Shown: positions 3,378 through 57,172 of the stretch, piece after piece | Layout: each line of letters starts with the position of its first letter | Numbering within the stretch: the first letter of the stretch is position 1 | DNA from: Methanothermobacter sp. | GTDB taxonomy: Archaea > Methanobacteriota > Methanobacteria > Methanobacteriales > Methanothermobacteraceae | Assembly: GCF_030055435.1 (NCBI RefSeq) | Contig: NZ_JASFYG010000006.1 | Coordinates: forward strand, 62,001 to 126,000 | DNA: 64,000 nt | Reading direction: 5' to 3' | Made by a program: the position numbers and the translations under genes | The notes under the pieces: model-generated | Databases searched by the model: none | Told to the model about the DNA's origin: nothing | Seen by the model: only the letters and a program-made list of their open reading frames with translations

Positions 3378-3382
3378 GGTCC

Positions 3383-46074: not shown

Positions 46075-46153
46075 TAAATTTATTACCATGGTTCACCAAA
46101 CCTGAAAAATGGAAACTTATTATATTATAATCCCTGATTAATACGTGGTCTTC

Positions 46154-46651
46154 ATGAAAATTATTCTCGACGCATCTGCATTCATAAATGGATACATACC
46201 TGAGGGCACTGAAAACTACACCGTGAAGTCCGTGACAGATGAAATAAGGGACTTCAAATCGGTTATGGTCCTCGAGAGGGCACTCAGTGATGGCAGACTC
46301 AGAATAATGGAACCTGACCCGGAGAGCATGAGGAAAGTGGATGAGGTCACCACCAGCTCAGGGGATGCCATGAGGCTCTCCAGTACAGACAGGGAGGTTA
46401 TAGGACTTGCCGTTTCACTCAAAAAGAGGGGTAGGGTAACTGTAATCACCGATGACTATACAATACAGAACACCCTCAGAATTCTTGGAATAGAGTTCCG
46501 CAGCGTCCTCACATCAGGTATAAAGGAGACCTATCAGTGGAGAAAGATATGCACCGGATGCAGGAGGGTGTACCCTCAGGACTACCAGTTTGGGGAATGT
46601 GAGATATGTGGCTCAGAGATAAAGAAGAAGAGATACAGATCCCGCCGTTAG
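46154..46651 (+). CDS. Nob1-like endoribonuclease (PIN domain plus zinc ribbon)
   Basis: The 165-residue protein has a PIN domain with Asp in [11 protein letters not shown], acidic residues in [12 protein letters not shown] and VITDDYTIQ, and a C-terminal zinc ribbon (CTGCRRVYP...CEICGSEI) with basic tail KKKRYRSRR. Nob1 cleaves the 3' end of pre-16S rRNA. I start it at the ATG 46154, three codons into a longer GTG frame. It leads the plus-strand run into the methanogenesis-marker genes. Confidence 0.88.
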
Positions 46652-46682
46652 AGGGGATCTTGCAGGAGGCGCAGGTGATCTT

Positions 46683-47804
46683 ATGAGGATAGGCGTGGTT
46701 GTCCATGGACCACAGATAGTTGACTCAGGATACGCAGCAAAACTCATAGATTTTCTAAAAAAATATGGAGAGGTCAGGGCAAGACTTGGGGGCACCATGG
46801 GGCGGACCGCTGTCTATGACGCCCACCTTGAGGATGTTATAGACATATCAGAGAAAAGGCTTCCAAGTGAATCGGTTGACCTATTTGCAGATGAGGGCGC
46901 CGACATTGTTGTCCTCATGAATTACGGTAAGTCCCGTATCACAGGGCACGGATTTGGATACAAGGTTTTCCAGAGATCAGAAAAAAAACCGCCAGTTGTT
47001 CAGATAGAAAGACCAGGTGAACCTGATGGAAGTGTTGTAGCATGGAAGAGGGAAGCCGAGCCATTCGCAGAAAAACTGGCATCTGAACTTGAACTTGAAA
47101 TGGTGGATCCAGAGGAGGTATGCAGGGAGATCTTCCATGGGGAACCATGTGGTGAACAGAAACCTGATAGAGGGGAGTACCGGAGACTCGTGGGTGTCTC
47201 AGAGAATGAGAACATATTCGTAAATGGTATAGTTGTTGGGGTCTCAACGTCAGACGACGTAACCCTCGTCGCAGAGGATGGTGTGATCACTGAGATAATA
47301 GGGGGGAAGATAAAGAAACACGGTGTTGAAAAACTTGGAAGGGTTAACCTGAAGGATGCGGTTGTAAAGACGGGACTTCTCCGCCGCTCCGAGGTAAAAC
47401 CCAGGAAAGTGAAGGTAAGGGAAAACAATAAAAAGAAGTACAGGATTTCCTTCTTAAACCATGCAGCAGAGGATATATACACTCTCCATGACTCTGACCT
47501 TGTTGTCACGGTTGGAGATGACACAACGCTAGTGGCTGCAGATATCCTCTACAGATTCGATGTTCCCATAATAGGGATAACAGACGGGGATATAGATAGG
47601 GTGGTTAAGAAGGGCTTCAAATGCGCAGATTCGATCATAATAGAGTTTGAGGAGGGATGGGACGATATAGTTGGTGAAAGAATCCACAGGGAGCTCTTCC
47701 GCGGTAAAAACACAATTGAAACCCATGATTTGGAAACTTTTAAAAGGAATTTACTACAGATTATAGATAATATAGGTGCAAGCTACACCGTGAGATACAC
47801 CTAA
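46683..47804 (+). CDS. DUF2117 family protein
   Basis: The 373-residue protein is typical of methanogens. The N-terminal third ([37 protein letters not shown]) and the C-terminal third ([39 protein letters not shown]) look like two alpha/beta Rossmann-type domains, with a Lys-rich linker. [12 protein letters not shown] resembles the nucleotide-binding GGDGT-type motif of NAD kinases. Function is unknown, but it is directly upstream of marker 2, so it is likely part of this methanogenesis operon. GGTGATC precedes the ATG. Confidence 0.75.
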
Positions 47805-47826
47805 ACCGATAAAAAGAGGTGTGGAA

Positions 47827-48813
47827 TTGGATTTAGATGATATCATCCATTCCCTTAAAAATTTTGAGGGTATAACAAGAAAAAGGCCGATAGGAAAGAT
47901 AGTTTCCATTCTTAATGATGCATACAGTGTCTCAGGAAAAACACATCTCGGTTACGGTGATGACGCCTCGGCCATCAGGATCGGAAACGGAAAACTTCTT
48001 TTACTGGCAGCGGATGGAATATGGGGGCGTCTGATGGAGGCTGACCCCCACTGGGCCGGTTACTGTTCTGTGCTTGTTAATGTTAATGATATTGCAGCCA
48101 TGGGCGGCAAACCCGTGGGCATGGTTAACGTTCTCTCAATTAACTCAAGGGAGACCTGTTACAGTGTAATGGAGGGTATAAGGGAAGGGGCAGAGAAGTT
48201 CGGGGTCCCGATGGTGGGGGGCCACGTGCACCCTGACACACCCTACGATGCACTTGATGTTTCAATTGCAGGTATAGCATCGGAGGATGCAATCATAACA
48301 AGCTGCGACGCAGAACCCGGCGACAGGGTTATAGTGGGCATAGACCTCGATGGAAAACCACACCCCTCATTCTTCCTGAACTGGGACACAACCACCCATA
48401 AAACACCTGAGGAGGTGCAGTTCCAGATTGAGGTGATGTCCATCATCGCAGAAAGAAAGCTGGTAACTGCAGGTAAGGATATAAGCAACCCTGGGACCCT
48501 TGGAACACTGGGGATGCTACTTGAGGCATCGGATGTGGGTGCACGGGTGGAACTGGAATCAATACCACGTAACAGATCAGTTAAGTGGGAGGACTGGCTT
48601 CGAATGTACCCTGGCTCAGGTTTTGTGCTGACAGCAAGGCCTGAAAATGCTGCTGAATGTATTGAATTACTTGAGTCTGCCGGAATAACCGCATCAGACG
48701 CCGGGGAGATAGTATCCGAAAGAAAACTCCGCTTAATCCATGATAATGAGGAAAGGATCCTCTTTGACTTTGAAAGGGACATCATAACAGGTGTGATAGA
48801 AGAAAAAATATGA
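47827..48813 (+). CDS. Methanogenesis marker protein 2 (AIR synthase-like)
   Basis: This 328-residue protein of the PurM/ThiL (AIR synthase) fold has [70 protein letters not shown] and the C-terminal [13 protein letters not shown]. The family phosphorylates small substrates with ATP. Marker 2 is restricted to methanogens. I start it at the TTG 47827, five bases after GAGGTG; a GTG at 47821 would overlap the ribosome site. It follows DUF2117 closely. Confidence 0.85.
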
Positions 48814-48823
48814 GGGAGATCTG

Positions 48824-50365
48824 ATGTTTGTTAAGGTTAATGGAGTGGAGGTTGAACTCCCGGAGGGGGCCACAGTGAGGGATGCAATCGATGCTACAGG
48901 AGCCCCCTACGTGGAAGGCGCCCTTGTGGGCCTCATAAGTGGCACAAGGGAACTTGAAAGAACAATAGACACATACCGGATCAAAACAACAGCAGGAAGC
49001 ATCCTGATTGAACTGCTCCCTGAGGAAGCACCTGAAATTGTTGAAACATGGCGGAAGGTATACAGTAACCTTGAAAATCTCCGTGTAAGGTGGACAACTC
49101 CATCCGAGATTTCAATGGGACCCCTGAAAACGGAACTGGAGCCGTCAAGGAAGGAATTCTTCTACAACGAGAAAGAGGTTATAATGAGCCTTTCAGGGTT
49201 CAGCCCGGATTCAACCCACATAATAATCTCCAGGGACCCCCATTCAGCAGTATACGGCGCCCCAGCTGAGAACAGGGGCGTTTTTGCAAGGGTAACCGGT
49301 GGAGGAAGAACCATTGAAAGACTGACAGACCGCGACGTGATAAGGTCAGTTGAACCAGTTGTTGAGAGAAAAAGCATAGTTGAGAGCGCCGCAGTGACAG
49401 ACCTTGAAACACCACTCGAGGACGGAAACCAGATATTCACCTACGTTAAGGTAAAACCATCCCACGAGTCCCCCCAGTCTGTTGAACACTTCTTCACAAT
49501 GGTGGAGGAGGGGAAACTGAGGGTCGACTATGAGGCCAACTCATTCATAGGTTTCTACTCCCTCCAGGGAATAAAAAAGGATCCCGAAAAAATAGCAAAA
49601 AGAAACAGGGGCACAGTGACCCTTCGGAACACAGGAAGGGGCGCTGGAAGGGTTTACATATACAGGGAGGACAGGGTTTCAACACCATCCCACAACCTCA
49701 TAGGACAAGTTACAGATGGAATGGAACTGGTTGATATAGCAGGGGAAGGGGACCAGATCACAGTGGAGTGCGAACCCGGCAGGATAATGACAGTCTCCAT
49801 GACCCAGAAGGAAGCAGAGGAATACCTTAAACGGTACGGTGTGGAGCAGATACGGGACGGCATAATGGTTGACGATGCAATCGTTGTGACCCAGGACCCA
49901 CCCTACACCATGGACATTCTTAAGGAGGGAAGGGTCAGAACAGTGGGCATAGAGGCCGATAAAATCCTGGAGGTTGAACTGGACCCTGATGCACCCAGAT
50001 CCTCATGGTACTTCCGCAGACTCACGGGCCTCATCGACACACCCATCGGATCCCTTAAGGTACACTTCGCCTTCCCAGGCATGAAGGTGGTGATGTTTGA
50101 GGGTGACAGATCCCTGGCAAAGGGACTTGTACCGGAGAAAACACCTGAAAACTGCGTTAAAAAGGGCAGCATTGGCATAACAAACATGTCAAGGAGACAC
50201 ATAGGCATGGTTGGTGTTAGACTAGAGGACAACGATGAATACGGCCCAACAGGGGAACCATTCAACGGCACCAACATAATTGGTAGAATCACAGAGGGCC
50301 TTGAAAATGTTGAAAAATTCAAAGAGGGGGACACCGTCTATGTCCGGGAAAGAAAAAAAACATGA
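48824..50365 (+). CDS. Methanogenesis marker protein 3 (Mmp3)
   Basis: The 513-residue methanogen-specific protein has an N-terminal ubiquitin-like/ThiS-type segment ([20 protein letters not shown]), a middle domain, and cyclophilin-like stretches ([40 protein letters not shown]). Mmp3 has been reported in the MCR activation complex with McrC and component A2. GGGAGATC precedes the ATG. The marker 6 start overlaps its last codons. Confidence 0.88.
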
Positions 50366-50786
50366 AGAATCAACAAGGATGATAATACTTGGGCCGTCAT
50401 CAAGGCTGAGCTCATCGGAACTTGTCCAGAGGCTCCACCTCCTTGGACTGCCACTCACCATAAAATCAACATGCTATGGTGCGCTGGTGCATGGTGACAA
50501 AGACACTGTGATGGAGGCTGTCAGGAAAATACGCAGCCTCGACCCGGCTAACATATTCACAAAGGAGAGGGGATTCCCACCAGGGGACCCCAGGCGATGC
50601 AGAGGACACAGAGGGGCAGCAAGGGAGGGTTACCATCAGCTTGAAAAGGAATTCAAACTACTCGGATACGTGGGCGAGGCCCTTGAAAGGCCCCAGAAGG
50701 CCGAACCCGAAAAAAAGGAGAAGGTTTCTGTTGATGAATTCCGCAATGTAGTTGAGAGGAGTCTGAAATCTAGACAGAAAACATAG
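50340..50786 (+). CDS. Methanogenesis marker protein 6 (Mmp6)
   Basis: The 148-residue protein has the core [39 protein letters not shown] and [20 protein letters not shown]. It is found only in methanogens and with MCR-activating proteins. I start it at 50340 ([10 protein letters not shown]), overlapping marker 3 by 26 bases with a GAGGGGG site; a start at 50379 (MIILG) is also possible. Confidence 0.85.
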
Positions 50787-50797
50787 GGCTGATTGAA

Positions 50798-51169
50798 ATG
50801 AAAATAACTTCATCATCCACTGGAGAGGAACTCAAGGAACTTGGAATGTGTATACATGAACTTGTAAGTCGTCTTCCCCTCACAATAAGGAGCCGGGAAG
50901 CAAAGGGTCTTCGAATAGAGGACGGCAAGGTGATCGATGACAGCTACACTGGGCCTGTACTTGAAAAGGTCCTTGAATCAGGAGAGATAGCAAGGGAAAC
51001 ACCCGAGAGGGGACCCTACAAGGGGATACCTGTGGTCGTGGTACCCCTGAAGGAGAAGGGTGAGGTTCTCTGTGCAGTGGGAATCGTTGACGCCACAAAG
51101 GGCCTCTTCACAGACATGGTTGAAATAGCCAGAAGACCCCAGGAGGAAGACAGGGGGGAATTCTATTGA
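50798..51169 (+). CDS. DUF2111 family protein
   Basis: The 123-residue protein carries the DUF2111 pattern: [20 protein letters not shown], then [20 protein letters not shown], then [20 protein letters not shown], resembling a small sensory or regulatory (GAF/PAS-like) fold. It is typical of methanogen marker operons. It sits between markers 6 and 5; the marker 5 TTG overlaps its stop. Confidence 0.8.
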
Positions 51170-51612
51170 AGATAGCGATATTTCCACCAAATTCACTTAT
51201 ACTCGCAGATCTTGTTGAAAGAAGGGGACATGAGCCCCTTGTAATCCAGAAAGAAATCAGAAAGAAGGTCACAGACCCTGAAATTGATTCACCACCCTTC
51301 AATATAACCGAGGAGGACCCGATAAAAGGCCTGAAGTACGCGGCAATTGAGGTTCCCTCAGGTGTGAGGGGGAGAATGGCAATCCTTGGACCCCTCATAG
51401 AGGAGGCGGATGCCGCCATAATAATGGAGGATGCTCCATTTGGCTTTGGATGCATAGGATGCGCAAGGACAAATGAACTCTGCGTATTCCAGCTCAGAAA
51501 GAAGGGCATACCCACACTTGAACTGAAATACCCTAAAACAAGGGAAGAGACAATAGATGTGGTTAACAGGATAAACAAATTCCTGGACGAACTGGAGGCT
51601 CAAAATGGTTAA
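51166..51612 (+). CDS. Methanogenesis marker protein 5 (Mmp5)
   Basis: The 148-residue protein has [60 protein letters not shown] and a Cys pair CIGC before TNELC. The three cysteines may bind a metal or Fe-S cluster. It is restricted to methanogens. The start is TTG at 51166, five bases after GGGGGGAA. Its end overlaps marker 15 by 8 bases. Confidence 0.85.
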
Positions 51613-52843
51613 AATAGCCCAGATTTCATGCGGAACAGAATACAGCGGTGTTCAGAAGGAAATTGAAAAGGCGGCGAGGACTTTCGGGGCCGAAATAGTA
51701 ATCCCCGAGGCTGACCTTGACTACATAGAAGAGGCCTATGAAAAATTTGGGTTCAACTGTGCCAGTTCAAGCCTGAAACTCATGATTGCAAGGGCAATGT
51801 CAATCGTTGAGGGCAAAACAGATGCCGACGCGGTTTTCATAGCAACCTGCTTCAGATGCGCAGAGGGTGCCCTTGTAAGGAATGAGATAAGGAGGTTCAT
51901 ACAGCAGAACACAAGGCTTCCAGTTGTAACCTACTCATTCACAGAGAGAACAAAGGCTGATGAGCTCTTCATACGCATGGAGGCGCTCTCCACAATAGTG
52001 GCAAGGAAGAGCATACTTGCAAGGGAGAAACAGGAGGGCCTCACACTTGGAATCGATTCGGGTTCAACAACCACCAAGGTAGTTCTGATGGAGGATAACG
52101 AGGTCATAGGGACAGGATGGCTTCCCACAACAGATGTCCTTGGCTCGGCAGAGAAGGGCATAGAGGAGGCCCTCGCAGGTACAGGTTACACGCTGAAGGA
52201 CCTTGATGGGATAGGAGTTACAGGTTACGGCAGGTTAACCATAGGAAAACATTACGGGGCCGACCTCGTACAGGAGGAACTCAGCGTAAACTCCAAGGGT
52301 GCAGTGTTCCTTGCAGACCACCAGAAGGGGGAGGCAACGGTCCTTGATATAGGTGGTATGGACAACAAGGTCATAACAGTCAACGATGGAATACCCGACA
52401 ACTTCACCATGGGGGGTATCTGCGCCGGTGCATCAGGACGTTTCCTGGAGATAACAGCCAGAAGGCTTGGAGTGGAGATAGATGAACTTGGAAGCCTGGC
52501 ACTGAAGGGGGACTACCGGAAGGCGATGCTCAACAGTTACTGCATAGTCTTTGGTATACAGGACCTTGTAACCGCACTTGCAGCGGGAGTTTCAAGGGAG
52601 GACGCAGCAGCCGCGGCATGCCATTCGGTGGCCGAACAGGTATATGAGCAGCAGCTCCAGGAAATAGATGTGAGGGAACCCCTCATACAGGTGGGTGGAA
52701 CATCCCTTATAGAGGGCCTTGTTAAGGCGGTAAGTGATATCCTGGGCGGTATCGATGTTATCGTACCCCCATATTCACAGCACATAGGCGCAGTTGGAGC
52801 GGCCCTCCTTGTTTCTGGAATGAAAGACGTCAGTGAGGGTTAA
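51605..52843 (+). CDS. Methanogenesis marker protein 15 (activase-type ASKHA ATPase)
   Basis: The 412-residue protein has an N-terminal domain of about 140 residues with Cys motifs ([27 protein letters not shown]). A C-terminal CoA-enzyme-activase/BcrAD-type ATPase follows: [44 protein letters not shown] and the cluster motif [14 protein letters not shown]. Activases of this fold use ATP to drive low-potential electron transfer from a [4Fe-4S] cluster. In this operon it is a natural candidate for powering MCR reactivation, which is inference. Confidence 0.88.
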
Positions 52844-52844
52844 A

Positions 52845-53402
52845 ATGGGGATAAATGTTGAGTGCTATGACCCCAGGGGTGCAGAGGTCTATGAGATAAT
52901 AGCCCGCCAGGTTCTCCAGGATCTCCAGCTTGCAAGGGCAGTTGATGACCTGAGAATATGGGTTGATCCCAGAGAGCCGGTCTTCATCATAGCGGTTAAG
53001 ACACAGAAGACCTCTGAGCCGATTTACCTTGAGGACATGGCTGAGATGGAGGTTGATAAGGTCACAGGAGCAGTCCACCTGAGGATAAGGGACGAGACGT
53101 ACCTTCCACAGCTACTTGAAAGGCTCTGGGAGACACAGGGACGTGGCAGGGTACGGCAGCCATCCCGCTTTGAGGTGGTGATTGAGGACCCCATCTCGGA
53201 TATCAGTGGAATGACGGTCCACGACCCCTCAATGAACCTGAAGAAGAGGGTCTACGATGCAATATTCCGTATAATACCAGAGGGATTCCGGGTTATAAGG
53301 GACCTTTCAGAGGATAACATAATAGCCCTTGTATGTACCGATGAGGTGCTAAGGGATGAATGGATTTTAAAGGCCAGGGAAATAATAGAGGATATGAGGT
53401 GA
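52845..53402 (+). CDS. Methanogenesis marker protein 17 (Mmp17)
   Basis: The 185-residue protein has INVECYDPRGAEVYEIIARQ, EPVFIIAVKTQKTSEPIYLE, RVRQPSRFEVVIEDPISD and LKKRVYDAIFRIIPEGFRVI. Mmp17 is a member of the MCR activation complex in other methanogens. I start it at the ATG 52845, two bases after the marker 15 stop, with GAGGGTT upstream, rather than at the GTG inside marker 15. nifB follows 6 bases downstream. Confidence 0.88.
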   Translation: MGINVECYDPRGAEVYEIIARQVLQDLQLARAVDDLRIWVDPREPVFIIAVKTQKTSEPIYLEDMAEMEVDKVTGAVHLRIRDETYLPQLLERLWETQGRGRVRQPSRFEVVIEDPISDISGMTVHDPSMNLKKRVYDAIFRIIPEGFRVIRDLSEDNIIALVCTDEVLRDEWILKAREIIEDMR

Positions 53403-53408
53403 AAAAAC

Positions 53409-54275
53409 ATGCCTGAACAGAGACAGACACGCTTCGCCCACATAACAAAGGCCCACCCCTGCTTCAATGAGAAACTGCACGACAGGGTTGGAAGGATACA
53501 CCTGCCCATCGCACCCCGCTGCAATATCCACTGCAAGTTCTGCACAAGGGATATAAGTGAATGCGAAAACCGGCCAGGGGTCACTGCAAGGATAATGACC
53601 GCTGATGATGCAGTAAAACACGTTGAGAGGGTTAAGAACGAGATGCCCATAAGTGTAATTGGGGTTGCAGGGCCCGGCGATGCCCTTGCAAATGAGGAGA
53701 CCTTTGAGTTCTTCAAAAAGGCCAGCAAGAAGTTTCCGGAGCTCCTAAAATGCCTCAGCACCAATGGTCTGCTTCTTCCAGATAAGGCTGATGAACTTGC
53801 AGAAATTGGTGTTAACACAGTCACAGTAACCGTGAACGCCATTGACCCTGACATAGGTGAGAAGATATACTCCTTTGTTATCTACAAGGATAAGGTCTAC
53901 CATGGAAGGGAGGCCTTCGAGGTTCTCTCAAAGAATCAGCTTGAGGGTATAGAGAAACTTGCAGAGAAGGGGATCATTGTTAAGGTCAACAGTGTACTCA
54001 TACCTGGCCTCAATGATGAACACATAGTTGACATTGCAAGGGAGGTTAAAAAGAGGGGAGCCTCCCTCATGAACGTCATACCACTCATACCGATGGGCGA
54101 GATGAAGGACTACCCACGGCCAACCTGTGAGGAGATCGAGAGGGTAAGGAACGAGGTTGAAAAGATAATACCCGTATTCAGGGCATGCACACAGTGCAGG
54201 GCAGACGCCTACGGTATTCCAGGTAAAAAGGGCGCTGACAGGCACCTTGACATGACACCAGCAAGCCACTACTGA
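53409..54275 (+). CDS. nifB: NifB radical SAM protein (nitrogenase-type cofactor maturase)
   Basis: The 288-residue short archaeal NifB lacks the C-terminal NafY-like domain. HPCFNEKLHDRVGRIHLP leads into the radical SAM cysteines Cys38-x3-Cys42-x2-Cys45 (CNIHCKFC). Cys18, and Cys-x2-Cys near the C-terminus (CTQCRADAYG), serve the extra clusters. NifB fuses two [4Fe-4S] clusters into the 8Fe carbide core used for nitrogenase cofactors. GAGGTGA precedes the ATG, 6 bases after marker 17. No nif structural genes are adjacent; the neighbours are all methanogenesis markers. Confidence 0.93.
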   Translation: MPEQRQTRFAHITKAHPCFNEKLHDRVGRIHLPIAPRCNIHCKFCTRDISECENRPGVTARIMTADDAVKHVERVKNEMPISVIGVAGPGDALANEETFEFFKKASKKFPELLKCLSTNGLLLPDKADELAEIGVNTVTVTVNAIDPDIGEKIYSFVIYKDKVYHGREAFEVLSKNQLEGIEKLAEKGIIVKVNSVLIPGLNDEHIVDIAREVKKRGASLMNVIPLIPMGEMKDYPRPTCEEIERVRNEVEKIIPVFRACTQCRADAYGIPGKKGADRHLDMTPASHY

Positions 54276-54291
54276 AAATCCCGTGATAACC

Positions 54292-55221
54292 ATGAAGACA
54301 CTGGAATGGAAGGACAACCGACTCATCCTTATAGATCAGAGAAAACTTCCCGATTCACTGGAGTACTTTGAGTGTGAAAACTACCGGGACGTCATATACG
54401 CAATAAAAAACATGGTTGTAAGGGGCGCACCGGCCATTGGGGTGACAGCAGCATTTGGAGTTGCCCTGGCAGACCTTGCAGGAGAGGACACTGAAAGGGC
54501 TGCAGAGGAGATAAGGTCATCAAGGCCAACCGCAGTGAACCTTTTCTGGGCAGTGGACCGTGTAATGAAATCCGGGTCCCCACTTGACGAGGCCCTGAAG
54601 ATCTACAGGGAGGATATGGAGACCAACAGGGCCATAGGGGCTCACGGGGCCAGCATAATCCAGGATGGCGATACAATCTTAACCCACTGCAATGCAGGCG
54701 CCCTTGCCTGTGTTGACTACGGCACGGCCCTGGGTGTTGTGAGGGCAGCCAGGGATCAGGGAAAGAATATAACCGTTATATGTGATGAGACAAGGCCCGT
54801 GGGACAGGGTGCCCGTTTGAGTGTCTGGGAGATGCAGCAGGAGGGCATACCCGTTAAACTGATAGCGGACGTTGCAGCGGGATACCTAATGCAGAGGGGA
54901 ATGATAGATAAGGTTATAATAGGTGCTGACCGTGTGGCAGAGGGTGGCGTGGCAAACAAGATAGGGTCACTCATGGTTGCACTCTCAGCAAAACGGTTCA
55001 ATGTACCCTTTTACGTTGCAGCACCCCTCAGCACCTTTGACAGGGAAAATTCAATTTATGATGTCGAGATAGAGGAAAGGAGTCCCGAAGAGGTCCTCTA
55101 TTATGGGGGCTGCAGGATAGCCCCGGAAAATACCGAGGCCATCAACCCGGCATTTGACATAGTACCCTCTGATCTTATAGACGGCATCATAACAGAGAAT
55201 GGTATAATGGATCCCCTCTGA
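54292..55221 (+). CDS. mtnA: S-methyl-5-thioribose-1-phosphate isomerase-like (MtnA)
   Basis: The 309-residue member of the eIF2B/MtnA/R15P-isomerase family has VVRGAPAIGVTAAFGVALAD, LTHCNAGALACVDYGTALGV, VICDETRPVGQGARLSVWEM, GADRVAEGGVANKIGS and PFYVAAPLSTFD. The catalytic Cys lies in LTHCNAG and the Asp in GADRV. It probably isomerises 5-methylthioribose-1-phosphate in methylthioadenosine recycling. I start it at 54292 after GTGAT. It follows nifB by 16 bases, so it may be transcribed with the marker operon. Confidence 0.9.
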   Translation: MKTLEWKDNRLILIDQRKLPDSLEYFECENYRDVIYAIKNMVVRGAPAIGVTAAFGVALADLAGEDTERAAEEIRSSRPTAVNLFWAVDRVMKSGSPLDEALKIYREDMETNRAIGAHGASIIQDGDTILTHCNAGALACVDYGTALGVVRAARDQGKNITVICDETRPVGQGARLSVWEMQQEGIPVKLIADVAAGYLMQRGMIDKVIIGADRVAEGGVANKIGSLMVALSAKRFNVPFYVAAPLSTFDRENSIYDVEIEERSPEEVLYYGGCRIAPENTEAINPAFDIVPSDLIDGIITENGIMDPL

Positions 55222-56377: not shown

Positions 56378-57172
56378 ATGCTTTACATAATTGGACTTGG
56401 ACTTTACGATGAAAACGATATATCAGTTAAGGGTCTGAAGGCCTTAAAGGCCTGCAGCAGGGTTTACGCCGAATTCTACACCGCAATCCTTCAGGGGGCC
56501 AGTTTATCTGCAATTGAGGAATTAACCGGTAAGGATATAGATATACTGCGCAGGGAGGAAATTGAGGAGGAAAGGATACCACTTGTTGAGGCAGAAAAAT
56601 CCGATGTTGCACTCCTCGTCCCGGGGGACCCCCTCGTTGCAACCACCCACACAGAACTGATCCTTGATGCAAGGAGGAGGGGCATAGAGACAAGGGTCAT
56701 TCATGCATCATCAATAATATCCGCTGCACCCGGCCTTGCAGGGCTGCAGGCCTACAAGTTCGGGAGGATAATCACGGTACCATTCACATCGGAAAATTAC
56801 TTCCCAACATCCCCCTACATTAATATAAAGGATAACCTTGAGAGGGATTCCCATTCACTGGTGCTCCTTGATATAGAGGCCCATAAAAGGAGGTATATGA
56901 CTGCAAATGAGGGCCTTGAATACCTGCTGAGGGCATCAGAGAAACTTGGTGATGAGACAATCAATGAAAAAACCCTGGCAGTTGTAATTGCAAGGGCCGG
57001 CTCTGAAAGGCCCTTAGTGAGGGCCGATGCAATATCCTCACTTCTTAATGAGGACTTTGGGGATCCACTTCACTGCCTTATTGTTCCCGCTGGACTCCAC
57101 TTCATAGAGGCTGAGTACCTTGTTGAGGTTGCAGGCGCGCCCCGCCGCATTGTGGAGGGAATGATAATCTGA
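56378..57172 (+). CDS. dphB: Diphthine synthase
   Basis: The 264-residue SAM-dependent tetrapyrrole-methylase-fold enzyme has MLYIIGLGLYDENDISVKGL, VPGDPLVATTHTELILDARR, VIHASSIISAAPGLAGLQAY and IARAGSERPLVRA. It methylates the modified histidine of elongation factor 2 on the way to diphthamide. GGGTGA precedes the ATG. Its stop abuts the stop of the small gene on the other strand. Confidence 0.93.
   Translation: MLYIIGLGLYDENDISVKGLKALKACSRVYAEFYTAILQGASLSAIEELTGKDIDILRREEIEEERIPLVEAEKSDVALLVPGDPLVATTHTELILDARRRGIETRVIHASSIISAAPGLAGLQAYKFGRIITVPFTSENYFPTSPYINIKDNLERDSHSLVLLDIEAHKRRYMTANEGLEYLLRASEKLGDETINEKTLAVVIARAGSERPLVRADAISSLLNEDFGDPLHCLIVPAGLHFIEAEYLVEVAGAPRRIVEGMII

What the first reader, a model, noticed from the sequence alone, without database searches (positions are those of the whole stretch)
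46683..54275. nifB sits at the end of a methanogenesis-marker operon (markers 2, 3, 6, 5, 15, 17)
The genes from DUF2117 to nifB run on one strand with overlaps or gaps under 35 bases. Markers 3, 6 and 17 are known parts of the ATP-driven MCR activation system, and marker 15 is an activase-type ATPase. NifB makes the 8Fe carbide cluster of nitrogenase. Its fusion to this run, without nif structural genes, suggests the cluster is used by MCR activation rather than only by nitrogenase. I recall recent structural work reporting nitrogenase-type clusters in that complex, but did not check it. DUF2117, DUF2111 and marker 5 would then be unstudied members of the same pathway.
Basis: partly seen in the sequence, partly recalled or inferred. 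Interest (0 to 1): 0.75.

Follow-up and report, generated by a model that had tools for sequence, protein, structure and literature searches.

The report
NifB gene in an MCR-activation operon
In this heat-loving methanogen the gene for the enzyme that builds nitrogenase's iron-sulfur-carbon cluster sits inside the operon that switches on the methane-making enzyme, which fits a published idea that methanogens keep this cluster for making methane.

Summary
The gene run is real: PIN-DUF2117-mmp2-mmp3-mmp6-DUF2111-mmp5-mmp15-mmp17-nifB-mtnA (46145-55221), one strand, overlaps or gaps up to 31 bases. The explanation, NifB making [8Fe-9S-C] clusters for MCR activation, is supported but in print: PMC12176620 describes the clusters, proposes NifB as their maker, and says M. 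marburgensis marker genes are followed by nifB.

Corrections: this genome has nifH, D, E-type genes on another contig; Mmp6 is not among that paper's listed components; mtnA follows nifB.

Added: (1) In 151 genomes of the phylum nifB is kept in 120 of 128 without nifD and follows mmp17 in 133 of 142 holding both. (2) In 216 genomes of a second phylum nifB tracks MCR without nif: 92 of 95 MCR+ nifD-, 13 of 90 MCR- nifD-. (3) The linkage is not universal: mmp7 follows mmp17 in 20 loci of other methanogens; in Methanococci nifB and mmp17 are convergent neighbours in 14 of 35. (4) Mmp15 has an activase fold with both cluster cysteines invariant, a candidate ATP-driven electron donor.

Verdict: sound, mainly known.

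The parts
46145..46651 (+). PIN-domain protein (NF009145 family), first gene of the run
   Evidence: next to DUF2117 in 19 loci
46683..47804 (+). DUF2117 protein
   Evidence: PF09890 444 bits
47821..48813 (+). Mmp2, AIR-synthase-like
   Evidence: TIGR03267 530 bits
48824..50365 (+). Mmp3, subunit of the MCR activation complex
   Evidence: TIGR03268 749 bits; matches 8s7v chain J, E 3.6e-102
50379..50786 (+). Mmp6 (DUF2102); ATG at 50340 also possible
   Evidence: TIGR03272 171.5 bits; starts checked
50798..51169 (+). DUF2111 protein
   Evidence: PF09884
51166..51612 (+). Mmp5 (DUF2112), invariant CxxC (C96, C99)
   Evidence: TIGR03271; alignment of 34
51605..52843 (+). Mmp15: N-terminal domain with invariant C9, C82, C85, then activase-type ATPase with invariant C273, C313
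   Evidence: TIGR03286 and TIGR00241
52845..53402 (+). Mmp17, subunit of the MCR activation complex
   Evidence: TIGR03291 261 bits; matches 8s7v chain G; start
53409..54275 (+). NifB, minimal radical-SAM form; CX3CX2C at 38-45, C260/C263
   Evidence: TIGR01290 311 bits; 7bi7 92% identity
54283..55221 (+). mtnA, S-methyl-5-thioribose-1-phosphate isomerase type, 7 bases after nifB
   Evidence: PF01008, TIGR00512 over cut-off; gap

Best explanation
This is the MCR-activation operon of a Methanothermobacter-like methanogen. Mmp3 and Mmp17 are subunits of the activation complex (shown in M. maripaludis by others). NifB makes the [8Fe-9S-C] L-type cluster that is installed in McrC and Mmp7 and carries electrons to F430 (clusters shown by others; NifB as source inferred there and here). 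Mmp15 is an activase-type ATPase that most likely feeds low-potential electrons into the pathway, perhaps with Mmp5 (inference). In this organism the single NifB would also serve the separately encoded nitrogenase (inference).
For: Gene run with tiny gaps. One full NifB in a genome with nifH, D, E-type genes on another contig. nifB in 120 of 128 genomes of the phylum without nifD; of the 8 without nifB, 7 are under 90% complete and the eighth holds masked stretches that read N. nifB follows mmp17 in 133 of 142, including 117 of 119 without nifD. In G001 the run is split by about 90 kb, yet mmp17-nifB stays a pair. Second phylum: nifB in 92 of 95 MCR+ nifD- genomes against 13 of 90 MCR- nifD-. 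Methanococci: nifB in 35 of 36 genomes, nifD in 2 of the 7 tested. Mmp15 domain: Z 34.4 and 32.1 to activases against at most 21.0 for the first other fold; both cluster cysteines aligned and invariant in 32 sequences. L188 has mmp6-DUF2111-5-15-17-7-3 upstream of mcrB, a McrD-like gene, mcrG and mcrA. PMC9584954 (passages) also found Mmp3, 7, 17 and A2 with tagged McrC. A GGAAN6TTCC site (NrpR-type operator as I recall it) lies 21 bases before nifH and none in or just before the nifB run, but one site in that stretch is not beyond chance (72 of 200 shuffles).
Against: nifB is not in the block elsewhere: mmp7 follows mmp17 in 20 of 20 loci outside the Methanobacteriota-type ones that could be scored; 21 of 35 Methanococci show no mmp17 in the fetched flank of nifB; the five genomes of genus g15 that hold both genes, all with nif, have nifB away from mmp17. 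Three MCR+ genomes of the second phylum lacked nifB (G229, G355, G363) and 2 of 33. 13 MCR- nifD- genomes have nifB-like genes. No expression, binding or cluster data could be produced here; PMC12176620 itself says the carbide needs validation.
Confidence: 0.85

Rival explanations
1. nifB is a nitrogenase gene that happens to be parked next to markers in this lineage; its position is inherited neutral linkage.
For: This genome has nif genes and may fix nitrogen; as an operon the linkage was seen only in Methanobacteriota-type genomes.
Against: 120 of 128 nifD-lacking genomes of the phylum keep nifB; in the second phylum nifB follows MCR without nifD (92 of 95 against 13 of 90). The one genus with nifB unlinked in every genome that could be scored carries nif.
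Confidence: 0.05
2. NifB feeds another shared iron-sulfur enzyme of methanogens (not MCR activation), and the operon is a general metallocluster or redox operon.
For: 13 MCR- nifD- genomes hold nifB-like genes; I saw no measured function for markers 2, 5, 6, 15, DUF2111 or DUF2117 in the passages read.
Against: Mmp3 and Mmp17 are subunits of the purified activation complex that holds three L-type clusters (PMC12176620); the block sits beside mcr genes in L188; per PMC4153887, 13 core genes including the mcr operon cluster in two Methanomassiliicoccales (passage).
Confidence: 0.08
3. NifB is co-transcribed mainly because of its by-products: mtnA next door recycles 5'-deoxyadenosine or methylthioadenosine, and the marker genes are upstream passengers.
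For: mtnA lies 7 bases after nifB here and downstream in 21 of 25 loci with nifB, 12 of them within about 700 bases; the other 4 contigs end within 3 kb.
Against: mtnA is on the opposite strand, one gene away, in G001 where mmp17-nifB stays a pair, and it is often kilobases away.
Confidence: 0.02

Closest known systems
[quoted passage not shown] also PMC9584954)
   Same: Mmp3 and Mmp17 subunits are encoded here; NifB is proposed there as the source of the [8Fe-9S-C] clusters; the paper names the M. marburgensis locus MTBMA c04360-c04410 followed by nifB.
   Different: In M. maripaludis the extra markers are said to be dispersed; Mmp2, 5, 6, 15 and DUF2111/DUF2117 are not in its list of co-purified proteins.
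NifB of Methanothermobacter thermautotrophicus (7BI7, 7JMA, 7JMB)
   Same: Same 288-residue minimal form without gaps, same radical-SAM and CxxC cysteines.
   Different: 24 of 288 residues differ.
Activases of 2-hydroxyacyl-CoA dehydratases and benzoyl-CoA reductase subunits (1HUX, 4EHT, 9GAI)
   Same: C-terminal domain of Mmp15: fold and both cysteines of the bridging cluster (ligand role recalled).
   Different: Mmp15 has an extra N-terminal domain of about 140 residues with three invariant cysteines; no dehydratase partner gene was recognised in the run.
Marker cluster A2-mmp3-6-5-15-17-7 of other methanogens
   Same: mmp3-6-5-15-17 in the same order; the same order from AtwA to marker 7 can be read from consecutive protein numbers in a table of PMC3226654 (passage).
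   Different: A2 and mmp7 flank the block; nifB is elsewhere.

Membership tests
NifB (minimal archaeal type) | Radical-SAM CX3CX2C and a further CxxC, full-length match to a characterised NifB | tested here: met
NifB (minimal archaeal type) | Synthesis of the [8Fe-9S-C] cluster | not testable with these tools
   needs biochemistry; recalled for close homologues, not measured here
MCR activation complex genes | Orthologues of purified subunits Mmp3 and Mmp17 | tested here: met
   not a computation; the component list in a passage of PMC12176620 lacks Mmp6
Activase (BcrA/D, HgdC) family for Mmp15 | ASKHA fold of activases | tested here: met
Activase (BcrA/D, HgdC) family for Mmp15 | Two cysteines for the bridging [4Fe-4S] cluster | tested here: met
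   aligned, invariant in 32 sequences; ligand role recalled
Activase (BcrA/D, HgdC) family for Mmp15 | Dedicated electron acceptor protein | not testable with these tools
   acceptor unknown; FeSIII of Mmp7 is a guess
2-hydroxyacyl-CoA dehydratase/DCCP fold for Mmp5 | Shared fold with cluster cysteine | tested here: inconclusive
   Foldseek best 8s02_B E 0.031, 7yyl_A E 0.22; VIA 7yyl_A Z 7.3 below TIR-like rows up to 10.6; no PDB profile match at E 10
Nitrogenase gene cluster | nifB next to nifHDK | tested here: not met
   nifH, alpha, beta-type and nifE genes on another contig

The most novel reading that the evidence does not exclude
The operon is a make, load and charge module. NifB makes the L-type cluster; Mmp17 is not just a subunit but the loading factor or gate at the outermost cluster site (FeSIII, which PMC12176620 places at the Mmp7-Mmp17 interface); Mmp15, with its N-terminal cysteine domain and Mmp5, is a second ATP-driven electron pump that charges this cluster. 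This would explain why mmp17 is neighbour to the cluster's maker (nifB) in Methanobacteriota and, on the opposite strand, in 14 of 35 Methanococci, but to the cluster's holder (mmp7) in 20 loci of other methanogens.
Probability: 0.2. Interest if true: 0.7.

Novelty: already known. Interest (0 to 1): 0.35.

Why it matters
If NifB's oldest job is to supply MCR activation, the carbide cluster of nitrogenase was invented for methane metabolism, and methanogens that never fix nitrogen should still need NifB. The gene-neighbour swap at mmp17 and the activase fold of Mmp15 point to which proteins to test for cluster loading and for the missing low-potential electron donor.

Tried and rejected
Absence of nifB, mmp15 and mmp17 in a complete methanogen (G128): looked like a strong counterexample (McrA present), but the genome holds masked stretches that read N, while the PIN, DUF2117, mmp2 and mmp3 genes of the run are there; dropped as uninformative.

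Homology of the Mmp15 N-terminal domain with Mmp5 or with dehydratase subunits: the order of strands and helices and the place of the CxxC look alike in the two models, but profile comparison gave probabilities of 0.6 to 3.6%, Pfam no match over a cut-off, and the PDB sequence search one hit at E 0.005 (a HisF entry with two repeats, taken as chance) and the rest above 0.1; not claimed.

nifB in an operon with markers outside Methanobacteriota: I gave 33 of the 71 loci's genomes to (those without Methanobacteriota-type titles); none of the 30 nifB loci returned shows a same-strand marker neighbour, with flanks of 1.5 kb or less, larger for thirteen of them. The tool's scan behind one search used two short peptide patterns, so the 71 loci are a sample, not a census. 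The group labels were set by gene content (nifB or mmp2 present), so I went back to record titles: 24 of the 25 loci with nifB name Methanobacteriaceae or a genus I place there, one says only Euryarchaeota (L171); none of the 20 with mmp7 names that family, four say only Euryarchaeota. Fisher's test is not quoted as a probability, because the genomes are related.

Paper searches. No paper naming Mmp15 as the electron donor of MCR activation, or Mmp17 as a loading factor, appeared in their listings (several listings were capped and most hits were matrix metalloproteinases or other unrelated papers); subscription papers are mostly not held.
Full report
What is there. Eleven genes lie on the + strand from 46145 to 55221: PIN-domain protein, DUF2117, Mmp2, Mmp3, Mmp6, DUF2111, Mmp5, Mmp15, Mmp17, NifB and MtnA. 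Gaps between neighbours are 31, 16 and 10 bases, then small or overlapping, 6 before nifB and 7 after it (the starts of mmp6 and mmp17 were corrected). A crude scan for TATA-like octamers finds none in a gap of the run, four inside genes, and two about 300 bases before the PIN gene. No promoter was measured.

Where it is. The window is part of a 1.67 Mb genome, 99.7% complete. NifB is 92% identical, without gaps, to the crystallised M. thermautotrophicus protein, so the organism is Methanothermobacter-like (inference). The genome holds one full NifB. On contig C2 lie nifH (over cut-off), a nitrogenase alpha gene (over two subfamily cut-offs), a beta-type gene (below each family's cut-off) and nifE (over cut-off). 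A GGAAN6TTCC site lies 21 bases before nifH. That motif is the NrpR operator as I recall it; one such site in 17 kb is not beyond chance (72 of 200 shuffles). None lies in or just before the nifB run; the two in the window, at 56791 and 59622, are the number chance gives.

Conservation in the phylum. In 151 genomes of the phylum, Mmp17 was found in 145, NifB in 143 (a few only as fragments, such as G054, G073 and G132), Mmp15 in 144 and nifD at E 1e-60 or better in 23. All 23 have NifB, so 120 of the 128 without nifD have it. Of the eight without NifB, seven are less than 90% complete; the eighth, G128, has McrA but holds masked stretches that read N, so it says nothing. Of 142 genomes with both mmp17 and nifB, 133 have nifB downstream of mmp17 on the same strand; 100 within 150 bases, 132 within 1000, one at 3381. 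Split by nifD: 117 of 119 without, 16 of 23 with. Of the nine not linked, four have nifB or mmp17 within 400 bases of the contig end on the relevant side and cannot be judged (G009, G010, G040, G109); five belong to one genus, g15, all with nif, and their fetched nifB flanks (1.6 to 9 kb upstream) hold no marker gene. The sixth g15 genome, G137, is 63% complete and had neither gene. In G001 (its length is that of Methanothermus fervidus as I recall it) the stretch from the PIN gene to mmp15 lies about 90 kb from mmp17-nifB, which stays a pair.

Other methanogens. A scan with an Mmp3 alignment gave 71 loci (two peptide patterns, so a sample), annotated with home-made profiles. Where mmp17 is in the locus, the next profiled gene is nifB in 25, mmp7 in 20, and the contig ends in 3; 23 loci have no mmp17. 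By record title 24 of the 25 are Methanobacteriaceae-type and one unspecified; none of the 20 is, four being unspecified. Family searches on example proteins confirm Mmp7 in two (a third, L188, below its cut-off) and A2 in two. The shared block is mmp3-6-5-15-17, with A2 in front in 18 loci. The same order can be read from consecutive protein numbers in a table of PMC3226654 (passage). In L188 the block, in the order mmp6-DUF2111-5-15-17-7-3, lies upstream of mcrB (246-base gap), a McrD-like gene (below cut-off), mcrG and mcrA. Of the 33 genomes given to the next two calls (33 of 71 loci, those without Methanobacteriota-type titles), 31 have NifB and 4 have nifD at E 1e-40 or better. In Methanococci NifB is in 35 of 36 genomes; in 14 of the 35 its neighbour is mmp17 on the opposite strand, tail to tail, 275 to 1843 bases apart; in 21 no mmp17 was seen in the fetched flank, which is cut short on some contigs. 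These 14 may descend from one event.

Does nifB follow MCR or nif? In 216 genomes drawn from the phylum of a Methanocorpusculum genome (Halobacteriota, as I recall its name; asked for at 90% completeness or more), McrA was found in 119 at E 1e-60, 106 of them over the family's cut-off, NifB in 134 at E 1e-40, nifD in 31 at E 1e-60. MCR+ nifD-: 92 of 95 have NifB. MCR+ nifD+: 24 of 24. MCR- nifD-: 13 of 90. MCR- nifD+: 5 of 7. Related genomes are not independent, so no probability is given. The three exceptions (G229, G355, G363) and the 13 NifB-holders without McrA were not followed up; some may be gaps in assemblies.

Mmp15 and Mmp5. The model of Mmp15 (32 sequences, mean pLDDT 89.8) has an activase domain at 144-410: Z 34.4 (258 residues, rmsd 1.7) to 9gai_D (MbdQ, named) and 32.1 to 1hux_A, against 21.0 for the first row outside the activases (Foldseek E 9.9e-21). 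The two cysteines that hold the cluster in activases (role recalled) align with Mmp15 cysteines at C273 and C313, invariant in 32 sequences; C9, C82 and C85 of the N-terminal domain and C339 are also invariant. Mmp5 has an invariant C96xxC99 and a Rossmann-like model (pLDDT 79.4) without a decisive match. Activases drive electrons uphill with ATP (established knowledge of the family). PMC12176620 says that extra Mmp proteins are presumably needed for physiological activation (section 10); Mmp15 is my candidate. This step is inference.

What is known. PMC12176620 (abstract and sections 6, 8 and 10 read, section 9 as a long passage) reports three L-type clusters in McrC/Mmp7, with the outermost at the Mmp7-Mmp17 interface, proposes NifB as their probable maker, cites its essentiality in methanogens without nitrogenase, and states that in M. 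marburgensis the marker genes MTBMA c04360-c04410 are followed by nifB and that Methanosarcina has an equivalent locus with A2. PMC9584954 (passages) found Mmp3, Mmp7, Mmp17 and A2 with tagged McrC. PMC8809328 (passages) suggested another function for nifB. PMC4153887 (passages) reports 13 marker genes including mcr in about 16 kb in two Methanomassiliicoccales. So both the observation and its reading are in print for a sister species. What I did not see in the listings or in the passages read is the swap of nifB and mmp7 behind mmp17, the convergent pair in Methanococci, or the counts above.

How it most likely works. NifB builds the cluster (established for close homologues, recalled); the cluster ends in McrC and Mmp7 (shown elsewhere); Mmp17 and Mmp3 hold the complex on MCR (shown elsewhere); Mmp15 supplies electrons with ATP (inferred). 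The gene neighbourhood makes Mmp17 the natural link between maker and holder of the cluster; whether it loads clusters is open. It has no invariant cysteine or histidine in the 11 aligned sequences (one of them partial), so it is not an obvious permanent ligand.

Noticed in passing
54283-55221: mtnA follows nifB after 7 bases and lies downstream of it in 21 of 25 loci with nifB, 12 of them within about 700 bases; it could recycle the 5'-deoxyadenosine that radical-SAM enzymes release (inference).
   Followed up: partly
L214, L162, L166: mmp5 is present as two tandem copies in three loci, one titled Methanosphaera and two uncultured Methanobacteriaceae.
   Followed up: no
L144, L145, L146 (G129, G126, G130), G114 and G109: Second nifB copies away from the marker run in four genomes of genus g14, and two adjacent copies in G109; tblastn with the run's proteins finds no marker near the three g14 copies fetched.
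   Followed up: partly
L188:6020-15801: Marker block upstream of mcrB, a McrD-like gene, mcrG and mcrA in a Methanomicrobia MAG.
   Followed up: partly
G000:C2:177686-178015 (L002) and G000:C2:204571-204867 (L003): Two small NifX-like proteins (below the NifX cut-off) match the C-terminal part of the NifB model, the second about 27 kb from the first; possible cluster carriers.
   Followed up: partly
G229, G355, G363: MCR+ genomes without a NifB match at E 1e-40; G355 and G363 have only McrA-type hits below the family cut-off, perhaps alkyl-CoM reductases.
   Followed up: no
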